A stretch of 64,000 nucleotides of DNA. Origin: Corynebacterium sp. P4-C1. GTDB lineage: Bacteria; Actinomycetota; Actinomycetes; Mycobacteriales; Mycobacteriaceae. Below the pieces are notes generated by a model, which worked only from the letters and a program-made list of their open reading frames with translations, searched no databases and was not told the DNA's origin. Positions 47,981 through 63,543 of the stretch are shown here, in pieces. Positions within the stretch are counted from its first letter, which is position 1. Each line of letters begins with the position of its first letter. The stretch covers positions 930,001-994,000 of the forward strand of contig NZ_CP129966.1 in the NCBI RefSeq assembly GCF_030503595.1, in the 5' to 3' direction. Position numbers and translations under genes: made by a program.

Positions 47981-48601
47981 CTAGATCGGCCGCGCGTTGA
48001 GCACGCGGAGCGGGTTACCGTAATCCACGGCCCACATCGCCACAAGAACGGCACAGGTGAACAGGAGCGTCAGGAGCGGTGCCCACTGTGCGGTGCCGCC
48101 GGTCACTGCCTCAAGAACCACAAAGCCGAAGCTGAAGCCGAACATCGCTCCGACGATCAAGAGCACGCCGGGGATCTGCGACGGCTTCCAGCTGACGAAG
48201 AGCAGGGCCGACGCGATGCCCACGCGCACCGACGCCGCGCCCAGCACCAAATCCGTCATCTCGGTGGACAGCAGGCGGCCCGCCCACACGATGTAGACGA
48301 CCGCCAGCAGCACCAGCAGCACACGACACATGGTCATGAGCAGCACACGGCGGGCCGAAACACGGTGGAATTCGGATTCGACACCGGCGTAGATGACCTC
48401 CGAGAGATCCTCCGGCGGAGACATCGAGCTGTCTGCTCGCGTGCCGTTGAGCGTGCGCGACAGCTCCAAAGATTGCTCCCAGTAGCGGCGGCACTCCGGG
48501 CACTCGGCGAGGTGCGCGTCCACCACATCGTTTGCGAGTCCGGTCTCTTCACCGTCGATGCGTGCCGACAGGGCAGCCTGCACGTCACTGTGGTCAACCA
48601 T
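47981..48601 (-). CDS. Membrane protein with N-terminal zinc-finger (anti-sigma-like) domain
   Basis: This 206-residue protein has a ZAS/zf-HC2 motif (DAHLAECPECRRYW: His-x3-Cys-x2-Cys) in the first 40 residues. A soluble linker follows, then four predicted transmembrane helices (for example VLLVLLAVVYIVWAG). The motif is typical of anti-sigma factors that bind ECF sigma factors, though no sigma gene is adjacent here. The first 8 bp overlap the end of doxX, so the two are coupled. Confidence 0.82.
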   Translation of the reverse strand: MVDHSDVQAALSARIDGEETGLANDVVDAHLAECPECRRYWEQSLELSRTLNGTRADSSMSPPEDLSEVIYAGVESEFHRVSARRVLLMTMCRVLLVLLAVVYIVWAGRLLSTEMTDLVLGAASVRVGIASALLFVSWKPSQIPGVLLIVGAMFGFSFGFVVLEAVTGGTAQWAPLLTLLFTCAVLVAMWAVDYGNPLRVLNARPI

Positions 48602-59349: not shown

Positions 59350-60047
59350 GGAGCGGTCTCCCGCAGCACGTAGCCGACGCCCCGGACAGTGTGAATGAGG
59401 CGGGATTCGCCGCCGGCCTCCGTCTTACGGCGCAAATAGCCGATGTACACCTCGAGGGCGTTGCCCGAGGACGGGAACTCGTAGCCCCAGACCTCCTCGA
59501 GGATCTTCTGCCGGGACAATACGCGGCGGGGATTTCGTAGGAGCAATTCCATCAGTGAGAATTCCGTGCGGGTGAGCGAGACGTGACGGTCACCGCGGTA
59601 GACATCCCGGGTGATCGCGTCAAGCCGCAAATCCTCGAAAACCAGCTCCGCCGCCGGACCATTGTTCGCCGGCATCACGGTGTCGGCTTGAGCACGGCGC
59701 AGGAGCGAGCGCACGCGCGCCAGCAACTCTTCAAGAGCGAAAGGCTTGGGCAGGTAGTCATCTGCGCCAGCATCCAGGCCGGCGACCCGCTCAGCTACAC
59801 CGTCCCGGGCGGTGAGCATGAGGATGGGCCGGTCGTACCCGGTGGAGCGTAATTCACGGCACACCCCGAGCCCGTCGAGACGCGGCATCATCACATCCAG
59901 AATGGTCAGATCCGGCTGCTCCGTCTCGATGGCGGCGAGAGCTTCAACACCGTTTTCCGCCAGCGCAACCTCGTATCCATTGAATTTGAGGGAGCGTCGC
60001 AGGGATTCACGGACTGCCTGCTCGTCGTCGACCACCAAAACCTTCAT
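59346..60047 (-). CDS. OmpR-family response regulator (MprA/CgtR2-like)
   Basis: This 233-residue protein has a receiver domain with [17 protein letters not shown], the phospho-Asp in [13 protein letters not shown] and switch LTARDG. A C-terminal winged helix has [36 protein letters not shown] and [10 protein letters not shown]. The start at 60047 is preferred to 60056: a CATAAT box at 60055-60060 on the minus strand would place the transcription start near 60048 and produce a leaderless mRNA. The mobile island begins at about 60069, only 21 bp upstream. Confidence 0.94.
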
Positions 60048-60070
60048 ACCCTCCATTATGGCAATCTTGG

Positions 60071-60294
60071 GTTAAACGACAGAAAGTGTGTCTGGATTCG
60101 GTGATTTGTAGTGCTTGACCTCTAGGTTTCAGGAAAATATATGCTCCGGGAGCATATATCTGACTCCGGGACGGTAAATCCTCGGTGTGGCAGCAGTGAT
60201 GTGCTACACGCGGCGTGGTGTGGTGTCGCAATGTCAAAGAACCAACCACGCTGCCACTGCGGCGGTGAGATGAAACGCAACGGCACCACCAGCA
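60071..60294 (+). repeat. 224-bp identical repeat, first copy
   Basis: By eye this segment is identical to 61453-61676, at a constant offset of 1382. It covers the IS left end, the promoter region and the first 21 codons of the transposase. Perfect identity argues for recent duplication or gene conversion. Confidence 0.9.
60137..60159. promoter_or_regulatory. 23-bp perfect palindrome in the IS left end, copy 1
   Basis: Arms ATATATGCTCC and GGAGCATATAT surround a single G. It lies about 70 bp before the transposase ATG (60231), and a CTCCGGGA repeat of part of the arm follows it. Possible roles are a repressor site or an mRNA hairpin limiting transposase expression. It is repeated at 61519-61541. 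Confidence 0.5.
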
Positions 60295-60702
60295 CTGGAC
60301 GAAGCAGCAGCATGGGGTACACAACTGCACGAATTCTCCACAATCTACCGCTCCTGGATGGACGAGAAAACGGTGGTCAAAGACCCAAAAACAGGTACAT
60401 GGACCCGCACGCGGACACATCACAACGTGCGCAAGGCCTACAACAGCCTCAACCACCTCTGGCGCTCCGACCTGCTGCTTGTCTACCTCACCCCACCAGA
60501 AGGTGTGCTGGAGAAAAACCGGATTAAATCCACCACCAACAGTCTCGAAGGCGACATCAACTCCCAGATCAAACTACTTGCCAGAACACACCGCGGAAGA
60601 TCAGGCGAACGACAACGCCGGATGCTGGATTGGTGGCTCTACTTAAAAACCGAACTGCCCGACGATCCAGCACGAATCGCCAGGCAGTCCAACTGGGGCT
60701 AA
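60231..60702 (+). pseudogene. IS1249-type transposase remnant: 5' end joined out of frame to the 3' end
   Basis: The first 21 codons carry the zinc-ribbon start (MSKNQPRCHCGGEMKRNG). After 60294 the sequence resumes in the +1 frame with the C-terminal portion: HEFSTIYRSWMDEKTVV, NSLNHLWRSDLLLVYL, NSLEGDINSQIKLLARTHRG and a TAA at 60700-60702. The catalytic middle is gone. It has the C-terminal part that copy 2 lacks. Confidence 0.85.
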
Positions 60703-60960
60703 GACCAACTCGCCAAAGTTTCCACCCTGACCCAACACGAGAACCAAACCGACCCCCTCTACGACAACGGTATCCCAACCGAGCCCCAACACAACATAGG
60801 AATGCGCAAAGGCCCCATGCAGTAAAAACAATGCCCGCCCGACGACACGCCGAGCCAGACACACATTCTGTCATTTAACCTTTATTTAGCAAAGGAGATT
60901 GCAATACGAAAACCCCAGTTCCATAGAAGAAATCTTGGGCGAAAAAATTCTTATTGAGAG

Positions 60961-61287
60961 CTATCGTATCTCGTACCCTACGACGTCAATTCCACGGCTA
61001 TTTTCACATGTTGCGCTGGATACCTGTCCATCTCCTACCCATTCGCCCCGCACTTTGTGGTAAATGTTCTCCCAGCGAATGACATCAAATCGCCTACAGG
61101 ATACAACTACTCGGTGTGAATGGACTCCCTTGCATGATGCGAACCCAGTTTTTCCTTCCTGCCACGTTTTGCAGCTAGGGGCAGCACTGGCCTCCGGGGT
61201 GGAAGGGATGGAGATAAGGCCAAGGGAAACGATTGCGGCGGCAGCAAGTCTCTTTGCTGCATTTTTGGAAGTGTTCGAGTGAAGCAT
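60961..61287 (-). CDS. Small exported cysteine-containing protein, island cargo
   Basis: This 108-residue protein has a Sec signal peptide (AAKRLAAAAIVSLGLISIP, cleavage near ASA-AP) and a mature part of about 75 residues with four cysteines (SCKTW, ASCKG, VSCRR, ATCEN), presumably two disulfides. It contains HSHRVVVSCRR and GEWVGDGQVSSATC, a layout seen in small secreted actinobacterial proteins of unknown role. ATG at 61311 is an alternative start. The DNA is clearly more AT-rich than the chromosome. It is the only intact gene between the IS copies. Confidence 0.7.
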   Translation of the reverse strand: MLHSNTSKNAAKRLAAAAIVSLGLISIPSTPEASAAPSCKTWQEGKTGFASCKGVHSHRVVVSCRRFDVIRWENIYHKVRGEWVGDGQVSSATCENSRGIDVVGYEIR

Positions 61288-61452
61288 GTCCTCGATTTTA
61301 GCAAAAATCATACTTGGGTCAATCTTAGTTTCTAAATCGTGATCTATAGGTGTGCTCTATAAGTATATCGTTTTTACTGAAGGGCCTATCTTTTTAGCTG
61401 AAATAAAACCCTCAATATGCGGGTATCTAGACGGGGTTAAACGCTAGACGGA
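61288..61452. other. AT-rich spacer between the cargo gene and IS copy 2
   Basis: The 165-bp stretch upstream of the exported protein holds its presumed promoter: TAAGAT is found 10-15 bases before the upstream ATG on the minus strand. Near its right end are two tandem copies of a 17-bp unit. No gene is seen. Confidence 0.5.
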
Positions 61453-61460
61453 GTTAAACG
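61427..61460 (+). repeat. 17-bp tandem repeat at the left end of IS copy 2
   Basis: CTAGACGGGGTTAAACG (61427-61443) is followed directly by CTAGACGGAGTTAAACG (61444-61460), 16 of 17 identical. Each unit ends in the first bases of the IS terminus (GTTAAACG). The first unit therefore looks like the scar of an extra IS end or slipped duplication at the element border. Confidence 0.65.
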
Positions 61461-61676
61461 ACAGAAAGTGTGTCTGGATTCGGTGATTTGTAGTGCTTGA
61501 CCTCTAGGTTTCAGGAAAATATATGCTCCGGGAGCATATATCTGACTCCGGGACGGTAAATCCTCGGTGTGGCAGCAGTGATGTGCTACACGCGGCGTGG
61601 TGTGGTGTCGCAATGTCAAAGAACCAACCACGCTGCCACTGCGGCGGTGAGATGAAACGCAACGGCACCACCAGCA
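61453..61676 (+). repeat. 224-bp identical repeat, second copy
   Basis: This is the partner of 60071-60294. The identity ends where copy 1 has its deletion junction. Confidence 0.9.
61519..61541. promoter_or_regulatory. 23-bp palindrome in the IS left end, copy 2
   Basis: It has the same arms and centre as at 60137-60159, lying about 70 bp before the transposase ATG at 61613. Confidence 0.5.
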
Positions 61677-62154
61677 AAGGAACTACGAGGTGGCGATGCA
61701 AACACTGCGGCGCGTCGAGTGTGAAGCGCCGCATCGACATCACCAATTCCACGGGTTTTACCGCCTTCATTGACCACCTGACCACTGGCGCCAGCCTCGA
61801 TACCATTGCCAGCCGTGTGGGATGCTCGCCGCGCACACTGCAACGCCGCTTCGAACCCTTCTGGCTCGTTGACGTACCCGATCCCACCATCGGACATATC
61901 GGGCGGGTCTACGACCAGGTGTTTCTAGACGGTACCTATACCGCCGGCGGCTGTTTGATCATTGCCGCCACTATCGACCATGTCATCGCCTGGCACTGGT
62001 GCAAACTCGAAACCACGCGCGACTACCAACGACTTCTCGAGCGCATCGAAGCCCCACTTATCGCCGTTATCGATGGCGGCCAGGGAGCGTTTAGCGCGAT
62101 CAAAAAGTGCTGGCCCACCACGAAAATCCAGCGTTGCCTCGTGCACGCCCAACG
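61613..62154 (+). pseudogene. IS1249-type transposase, N-terminal 180 codons
   Basis: It begins with a zinc ribbon (CHCGGEMKRNG then WRCKHCG), followed by a helix-turn-helix-like stretch (DTIASRVGCSPRTLQRRF) and the first part of the DDE domain: VFLDGTYTAGGCLIIAA (first Asp) and VIDGGQGAFSAIKK (second Asp region). At 62155 the IS3-type inverted repeat cuts the gene; the frame runs into a TAG at 62171-62173 inside the inserted element. Confidence 0.88.
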
Positions 62155-62204
62155 TGAAGTGTCCTGGGTTTAGTTCCGATCATTTCTAGAGAAAGATTGG
62201 AATC

Positions 62205-62522
62205 ATGCCAAGGAAGTACAGTGACGAGTTCAAGACCAAGGCAGTGCGCTTGGCTGAGGACCTCGTTGAGCTCGAAGGGTGTTCGAAATGGGGTGCAGCC
62301 GTAGAGATCGGTGAAAAGCTCGGCATTCCAGCGCACACGCTCAACGATTGGCTGAAGCCGAATATGGTCTCATCCGATGTTGAGATTGGCGCCGGCGAGT
62401 CAACGGCTGACGAACTGAAGCGGCTGCGGAAAGAGATTAAGGAGCTACGCAGGGCTAATGAGATCTTGAAAACCGCGTCAGCTTTTTTCGCGGCGGAACT
62501 CGACCGTCCCACCAGAAGATGA
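62205..62522 (+). CDS. IS3-family transposase OrfA
   Basis: This 105-residue protein has an N-terminal helix-turn-helix (KYSDEFKTKAVRLAEDL, IPAHTLNDWLKP) and a C-terminal leucine zipper (ELKRLRKEIKELRRANEIL), as usual for OrfA. It binds the IS ends. Its 3' end overlaps orfB by 4 bp. A frameshift to make OrfAB is typical of the family. Confidence 0.92.
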   Translation: MPRKYSDEFKTKAVRLAEDLVELEGCSKWGAAVEIGEKLGIPAHTLNDWLKPNMVSSDVEIGAGESTADELKRLRKEIKELRRANEILKTASAFFAAELDRPTRR

Positions 62523-63396
62523 TCGAATACATCGATGCGTATCGCGATCGCTTCGGGGTCGAGGCTATCTGTCGCACATTGAAAAAGACAGAATGTGGGT
62601 TCATCACCTCTCGCGGTTACCGAGCAGCGAAAACACGAGCACCGTCGGCGAGAAGTTTGTCAGATGCGCTGCTTATTCCTGAATTGGTGAGGGTCTACGA
62701 GGACAACTTCAGCGTCTACGGGATCCGCAAGATGTGGAAGGCCATGCAGCGCGCCGGCTGGAACATCGGTCGTGATCAGACCGCGCGTTTGATGAAGCAA
62801 GCTGGCATTTACGGCCGCAGGCGTGGCCGCACACCGATGACAACGCTTCGGGCCAACGTGCCAGATTGCCGCCCTGACCTGGTCAACCGTGATTTCACTG
62901 CCCCCGCACCGCACCGGTTGTGGGTCGCTGACATTACCTATGTACGCACCTTGTCTGGTTTTGCCTACACCGCGTTTATCACCGATGTGTACTCCAGAAA
63001 GATCGTCGGTGTCGCGACCCGGGCGAGCATGCGTACCGATGAACTGCCGCTGGAGGCCTTTGAGCACGCCCTGTATCACGCTGGTGATCTTCGCCCAGAA
63101 GGGCTTGTCCACCACAGTGACCGCGGCTCGCAGTATGTGTCGATCCGTCTGTCGGCACCGTTGGCGACTCCTATGACAACGCGTTGGCTGAAACGGTCAA
63201 CGGGCTCTACAAAACAGAGCTGATTTATCCCCACCGGCCGTGGGCATCGGTCGGTGAAGTCGAGATTGCCACCCTTCGCTGGGTGCACTGGTGGAACAAC
63301 CAGCGACTTCATCAATCCCTAAGATATATCACTCCACAGGAGATGGAGGACGCTTACTATCAACGATCAGGCGCTCAAACGTTGGGCGTTAAATAA
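62519..63396 (+). pseudogene. IS3-family transposase OrfB, disrupted by an internal deletion
   Basis: The HTH_21 region (YEDNFSVYGIRKMWKAM) and the first two catalytic Asp (LWVADITYVRT, HHSDRGSQYVSI) are intact. After 63148 the frame is wrong. The expected continuation (VGTVGDSYDNALAE, with the catalytic Glu) follows at 63151 in another frame and runs to the stop at 63396. The Asp-to-Glu spacing is about 22 residues instead of about 35, so some 37-40 bp are missing. The element cannot make an active transposase. Confidence 0.88.
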
Positions 63397-63543
63397 GCGG
63401 AACGAAAACCAGGACGCTTCAGAGCCCCAACACTACATAGTAATGCGCAAAGGCCCCATGCAGTAAAAACAATGCCCGCCCGACGACACGCCGAGCCAGA
63501 CACACATTCTGTCTTTTAACGCGCAATCTTCCCTGCACAAGCG

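What the first reader, a model, noticed from the sequence alone, without database searches (positions are those of the whole stretch)
60061..63530. Composite IS1249-like island bounded by an 8-bp direct repeat
GCAATCTT appears two bases outside the left inverted repeat of copy 1 and two bases outside the right inverted repeat of copy 2. No equivalent pair flanks the inner ends. This is what a single insertion of the whole 3.45-kb unit would leave. The copies are in direct orientation, share 224 identical bp and enclose a cargo gene. An alternative is one ordinary IS insertion, later expanded by recombination with another copy.
Basis: partly seen in the sequence, partly recalled or inferred. 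Interest (0 to 1): 0.75.

Follow-up and report, generated by a model that had tools for sequence, protein, structure and literature searches.

The report
Decayed IS1249-type composite transposon remnant
A pair of jumping genes carrying one small, almost unknown secreted-protein gene most likely landed as a single unit between two ordinary Corynebacterium genes and has since broken down; it is a new example of a known kind of element.

Summary
GCAATCTT stands at 60061-60068 and 63523-63530. Intact relatives show IS1249-group ends as GG...CC, so the repeat abuts the element exactly; 12 of 19 readable copies in the genus have a perfect 8-bp duplication there. The inner flanks share none. The one same-species genome held lacks the island and has a single GCAATTTG at that point. 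18 of 18 other-species loci examined lack it too.

Of four other IS1249 clusters looked at, two have matching outer 8-mers. Tn5432 matches at 7 of 8 in a Cutibacterium acnes plasmid but only 3 of 8 in pTP10. Best reading: a composite transposon that inserted once. One IS insertion followed by recombination with a circle of cargo plus IS would look the same and is not excluded.

The parts
60061..60068 (.). left outer 8-bp target duplication GCAATCTT
   Evidence: length and position rule
60069..60881 (+). copy 1: IS1249-group remnant, 813 bp, with both ends but an internal deletion (junction after 60294) of about 569 bp relative to a 1388-bp relative
   Evidence: alignment to L020-L027 and pTP10, gap table; the 114-aa frame 60358-60702 matches NF033544 positions 227-340 of 382
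60882..61450 (.). 569-bp segment between the copies, 45.5% GC against 63% for the window
   Evidence: no DNA match in 241 other genomes of the genus, PLSDB plasmids or phages
60961..61311 (-). cargo ORF, 116 aa, putative signal peptide and four cysteines in the mature part; a start at 61287 is also possible
   Evidence: relative P0001 89% identical over the full length; promoter-like TTGACC-16-TAAAAT at 61322-61295
61427..61460 (.). 17-bp imperfect tandem duplication (16 of 17) spanning the inner left edge of copy 2
61451..62154 (+). copy 2, left piece: 704 bp of the IS1249-group element, transposase cut off
   Evidence: 97.0-97.8% identical over 691-702 nt to L020-L024; NF033544 positions 1-177 of 382
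62155..63421 (+). IS3-family element, 1267 bp, inserted in copy 2, lacking 37 bp relative to a full copy elsewhere in this genome
   Evidence: NF033516 and rve domains; 1261 of 1267 aligned bases identical to L002; ends and flanks
63422..63522 (+). copy 2, right piece: 101 bp ending in the right inverted repeat
   Evidence: 96 of 99 identical to 60781-60879
63523..63530 (.). right outer 8-bp target duplication GCAATCTT

Best explanation
A composite transposon made of two direct copies of one IS1249-group (IS256-family) element around a 569-bp segment with one small gene was inserted once, by the transposase acting on the two outermost ends, into the gap between rpmF and mprA. The 8-bp target GCAATCTT was duplicated. 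Afterwards the island decayed: copy 1 lost its middle; copy 2 received an IS3-family element and lost DNA beside it; the IS3-family element lost 37 bp. No complete transposase remains in the island, so it should not move unless a transposase is supplied from elsewhere. Shown: anatomy, repeat, empty site, deletions. Inferred: the single event, its transposase, the order of the decay steps and present immobility.
For: Exact 8-bp repeat directly outside the two outermost ends; 12 of 19 relatives with readable ends have perfect 8-bp repeats at the same offset; inner flanks unrelated. Empty site with one GCAATTTG and a gap of about 72 bp in the same species, and 18 of 18 other-species loci examined have rpmF 94-515 bp from mprA without the island. 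Both copies share a diverged right tail (96 of 99) not seen in the seven relatives aligned with them, and an exact 30-mer of it occurs in no genome contigs record, so they come from one IS variant. Outer 8-mers match in two other IS1249 pairs, AGAAAAGT around a pair with tetAB-like genes in G054 and TCCTGTTC around a pair with a tet(W)-type gene in G159, and at 7 of 8 around Tn5432 in C. acnes plasmid AP025555.
Against: The empty-site 8-mer matches at 6 of 8, not 8. pTP10's Tn5432 has outer flanks agreeing at only 3 of 8, and the other two clusters looked at (L086 with masked bases, L087) do not show the signature, so paired copies do not always carry it. Three of the four IS ends here deviate from the group's GGGTTAAACGACAG form, the outer right one included. 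No second instance of this unit was found.
Confidence: 0.7

Rival explanations
1. Stepwise growth: a single IS1249-group element inserted between rpmF and mprA and made the GCAATCTT repeat; later a circle carrying cargo plus one IS copy recombined into it by homology, giving IS-cargo-IS inside the same repeat.
For: It predicts the same outer repeat, direct orientation and near-identical copies. Single copies with their own 8-bp repeats are common in the genus (12 of 19).
Against: No same-species genome with a single copy at the site was available; the only one held is empty. It needs two events where one suffices.
Confidence: 0.22
2. Two independent IS insertions next to each other, the cargo being old DNA of this site and the outer 8-bp match a coincidence.
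For: Two IS copies near each other occur elsewhere in the genus.
Against: Each copy should then have its own flanking repeat; inner and outer flanks agree at only 2 of 8 and 3 of 8. The 569-bp segment has 45.5% GC against 63% and is absent from the same-species genome. Chance identity of two 8-mers is about 5e-5.
Confidence: 0.03
3. The whole arrangement is an assembly artefact between IS copies.
For: IS-rich genome, and its contig ends lie inside an IS3-family copy.
Against: Single closed-size contig; no other IS1249 copy of this variant in the genome to misassemble with, only cousins at about 70%; the matching outer 8-mers and the fitting empty site in a sister genome would be unexplained.
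Confidence: 0.03

Closest known systems
Tn5432 (IS1249-erm(X)-IS1249)
   Same: Two direct IS1249-group copies around a short cargo; in C. acnes plasmid AP025555 the outer flanks agree at 7 of 8.
   Different: Cargo is not erm(X); IS sequence only about 79-80% identical to pTP10's IS1249; both copies broken; outer repeat is exact, whereas pTP10's Tn5432 has 3 of 8.
IS1249 (IS256 family)
   Same: Transposase fragments match NF033544, 8-bp target duplications, similar ends.
   Different: About 80% DNA identity; fragments fall below the model's whole-protein cut-off of 300 bits (134.6 and 253).
IS1249-type elements of genomes G037, G069, G102, G126, G127
   Same: Left half 97.0-97.8% identical to copy 2.
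   Different: Right part about 87% identical to copy 1, with a different tail.
Lactococcin 972 (bacteriocin), fold only
   Different: No Pfam match; profile comparison with four corynebacterial family members gives probability 0.3%; those members keep different conserved residues.

Membership tests
Composite transposon (class I) | Two copies of one IS flanking a segment with a gene | tested here: met
   both copies are now defective
Composite transposon (class I) | Target duplication of the IS's usual length outside the outermost ends only | tested here: met
Composite transposon (class I) | Unit found at another site, or shown to move as a unit | tested here: inconclusive
   no second instance found in genus genomes, plasmids, phages, genome contigs or viral contigs; movement itself cannot be tested here
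IS1249 group of the IS256 family | IS1249-family transposase | tested here: inconclusive
   two fragments match NF033544 at 4.6e-39 and 5.1e-75 but below the whole-protein cut-off
IS1249 group of the IS256 family | 8-bp target duplication and group inverted repeats | tested here: met
   three of four ends carry changes
IS1249 itself | near-identity to the named IS (the 95% naming rule is recalled) | tested here: not met
   79-80% to pTP10 IS1249, up to 87.6% in the first 226 bp
Tn5432 | erm(X) between two IS1249 copies | tested here: not met
   the segment holds only the 116-aa orphan ORF
IS3 family (element inside copy 2) | IS3 transposase with rve domain | tested here: met
   NF033516 174 bits in orfB (cut-off 160), PF00665, PF13683; frame broken by a 37-bp deletion
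IS3 family (element inside copy 2) | 3-bp target duplication | tested here: not met
   ACG against GAG here; 5 of the 6 other long copies in this genome have a 3-bp repeat, the one across the contig ends does not
Lactococcin 972 bacteriocins | Family profile PF09683 | tested here: not met
   no match at E<=1; 6 of 61 genomes of the genus have family members, this genome none
Lactococcin 972 bacteriocins | Beta-sandwich fold | tested here: inconclusive

The most novel reading that the evidence does not exclude
A composite transposon of the Tn5432 kind carrying, in place of drug resistance, a secreted lactococcin-972-fold protein (a bacteriocin or its relative): IS1249 composites would then spread weapons of bacterial competition among corynebacteria as well as resistance.
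Probability: 0.08. Interest if true: 0.5.

Novelty: new member of a known kind. Interest (0 to 1): 0.3.

Why it matters
It adds a composite in which the IS1249 group carries a cargo other than drug resistance, with an unusually complete record for a small element: exact duplication, a same-species empty site, and readable later decay. With the G054 and G159 pairs it suggests that IS1249-group copies capture segments repeatedly. The island also sits four bases upstream of the first ATG of mprA and may have replaced that regulator's promoter, which is testable.

Tried and rejected
Looked for a second instance of the cargo or unit without success: cargo protein in genome contigs, viral contigs, plasmids, phages; cargo DNA in 242 genomes of the genus, only its own matched; plasmids and phages in distant mode; a 30-bp piece of the IS tail in genome contigs. 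The relative P0001 lies on contigs of at most 1356 bp, whose surroundings I could not see.

Distant cargo relatives: 7 of 241 other genomes give weak matches; only G164 (38% over 80 aa, signal part in another frame) and G143 share the C-TW-G-T pattern by eye. A second protein search from alignment A2 gave 2 hits, P0001 and P0002; P0002 is a 96-aa Corynebacterium camporealensis protein, the same length as the G143 protein already in the query alignment. PHROGs gave nothing better than E 0.2 for the cargo. A sequence profile search against the PDB gave no match.

Lactococcin 972 was considered as the cargo's family and not adopted. The Formosin D entry (9hkj) could not be identified: the one paper found (listing only) was not opened.

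Considered and rejected: an outward promoter of the left IS end driving mprA; the scan lists no promoter-like site there, but it covers sigma-70 patterns only. An IS excision footprint as the source of the 17-bp tandem duplication was considered; a plain tandem duplication is simpler and neither was tested. The original Tn5432 paper (Tauch 1995) is not held; I saw only its reference entry in PMC1590026.

Notebook entry 1 is wrong in four details, and this report replaces it: the copy-1 end (60881, not 60882), the size of its deletion (569, not 541), the tandem-duplication coordinates (61427-61460), and the statement that both inner flanks were compared for G159, where only one is readable.
Full report
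What was claimed and what is there. That is correct: the 8-mer is exact at 60061-60068 and 63523-63530. The window holds a third copy at 48469, and 13 of 100 shuffles have three or more, so the word is not rare; its position makes it meaningful. The inner flanks are TTATTTAG after copy 1 and GCTAGACG before copy 2, agreeing with GCAATCTT at 2 and 3 of 8 positions. Two random 8-mers of the window agree fully at a rate of about 5e-5.

Where the IS ends. In intact relatives the element begins GGGTTAA and ends TTAACCC or TTAAGCC, and the two outermost bases belong to it. I scanned 29 loci (L020-L048), mostly one copy per genome; 19 gave a copy with both ends and both flanks, and 12 of the 19 have a perfect 8-bp repeat right outside those bases (printed for both strands as 24 of 38). 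Seven do not: L020, L028, L031, L033, L034, L038 and L039. L033 and L034 are right-hand members of the pairs below. So 8 bp is the group's usual duplication, and the window's repeat sits exactly where it should. Passages read in PMC7780238 describe the IS256 family as copy-out/paste-in elements that form circles, and say that most copies of its member ISCth4 have 8-bp duplications.

Anatomy. The element spans 60069-63522, 3454 bp. Copy 1 (60069-60881, 813 bp) has both ends but lacks about 569 bp of its middle and a further 18 bp relative to the 1388-bp copy in L021. Copy 2 begins at 61451; its left piece ends at 62154, where an IS3-family element of 1267 bp (62155-63421) begins, and only 101 bp of IS1249-type DNA follow (63422-63522). 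Comparing those 101 bp with copy 1, which carries the same stretch at 60781-60881, puts the loss in copy 2 at about 595 bp. The IS3-family element agrees with another copy in this genome at 1261 of 1267 aligned bases but lacks 37 bp, which breaks its reading frame. Five of the six other long copies in this genome have a 3-bp duplication (GAG, GGT, CTT, CCC, GTG); the sixth, lying across the contig ends, does not, and the copy here does not either (ACG and GAG). That fits a deletion beside the inserted element. Neither IS1249-type copy encodes a whole transposase: the fragments match positions 227-340 and 1-177 of the 382-position IS1249 model, below its whole-protein cut-off. The genome has an intact 394-aa IS1249-family transposase in a cousin element at about 70% DNA identity; whether it could act on these ends is unknown.

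The two copies are sisters. They share 224 identical bp at the left and 96 of 99 at the right. The left 691-702 bp of copy 2 are 97.0-97.8% identical to elements in G127, G037, G126, G102 and G069, whereas the right part of copy 1 is about 87% identical to the same elements; pTP10's IS1249 is 79-80%. The right tail of both copies differs from all seven relatives aligned, and an exact 30-mer of it is in no genome contigs record. One variant IS therefore gave both copies.

The empty site. One genome of the same species is held (G035). It matches the mprA side at 97.1% and the rpmF side at 99.8% and has 72 bp between those matches where the window has about 3.5 kb. The bases there read GGCAATTTGCAG: one 8-mer, GCAATTTG, agreeing with GCAATCTT at 6 of 8, in line with other differences in that short gap. 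In other species, one search found a match to the mprA end in 52 of 61 genomes, own and same-species included; I examined the 18 other-species loci that were fetched. All 18 have rpmF near mprA, with gaps of 94-515 bp and no island. So the island is an addition in this strain or lineage.

Controls. I looked at four places where two IS1249-group copies lie close together, picked by eye from the listed matches, a list that is cut. In G054 (L084) the outer 8-mers are both AGAAAAGT and the inner ones AAAATTTG and TGTTCGAC; the pair encloses tetAB-type transporter genes, pyrD and mshC among others. In G159 (L085) the outer 8-mers are both TCCTGTTC around a tet(W)-type gene; the left copy is truncated, so one inner flank only is readable. 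L086 contains masked bases at its inner ends and has different outer 8-mers. L087 has a copy with its own repeat beside another left end. For Tn5432 itself, the C. acnes plasmid AP025555 has outer flanks GTCGGTGT and GGCGGTGT, 7 of 8, while pTP10 has 3 of 8. The outer-only signature is thus a recurring but not constant feature of IS1249 pairs.

How it arose. One insertion of a composite unit explains the outer repeat, the unmatched inner ends, the shared variant and the empty site with a single event. The rival, an IS insertion followed by homologous recombination with a circle of cargo plus IS, leaves the same marks. Only strains with intermediate states, or the same unit at another site, would separate them. 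I put the first at 0.7 and the second at 0.22. The order of the later steps is inferred, except that the IS3-family element must have entered copy 2 after that IS existed.

Literature. I read passages, not whole papers: PMC1590026 (IS1249 as part of Tn5432, preferring triple A or T targets), PMC8304765 (Tn5432 as an IS1249 composite carrying erm(X)), PMC10383950 (IS1249 of 1385 bp in Bifidobacterium). Searches for IS1249 or Tn5432 (56 papers, 20 listed) and for IS1249 with composite transposon or target duplication (150 papers, 10 listed) showed no title about an IS1249 composite with this cargo; unlisted papers were not seen.

Organism. The window lies in a 2.31-Mb Corynebacterium genome with one contig. 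The best named match of its sensor kinase is Corynebacterium genitalium at 65%, so the species is probably not among those named in that list.

Noticed in passing
window 60047-60068: The left target duplication ends four bases from the first ATG of mprA (60056; a second ATG at 60047), so the island separates this two-component regulator from its former upstream DNA.
   Followed up: partly
window 61427-61460: CTAGACGG is repeated 17 bp apart with nine bases of an IS left end between, an imperfect 17-bp tandem duplication at the inner edge of copy 2. CTAGACGG is 8 bp, the length of a target duplication; origin unexplained.
   Followed up: partly
L084 860-12883 (G054): IS1249 pair with identical outer 8-mers AGAAAAGT around about 9.2 kb holding tetAB-type transporter genes together with pyrD and mshC.
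   Followed up: partly
L085 1129-6254 (G159): IS1249 pair, left copy truncated, with identical outer 8-mers TCCTGTTC around a tet(W)-type gene.
   Followed up: partly
L070 5993-6000 and L088 8133-8140: In Tn5432 the inner flank of the second IS1249 is TGCAATCT, sharing seven letters with the window's GCAATCTT; judged a coincidence, since the window's 8-mer belongs to the host site.
   Followed up: no
G000:C1:1329947-1331252 with 1329815-1332127: An IS3-family copy lies inside one of two IS1249 cousin elements of this genome; the other cousin (1358900-1360700, L081) has an intact 394-aa transposase frame.
   Followed up: partly
G000:C1 ends (L007, L008): The contig starts and ends inside an IS3-family copy whose outer 3-bp flanks differ (CTC and GAC), perhaps a joining point of the assembly.
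   Followed up: no
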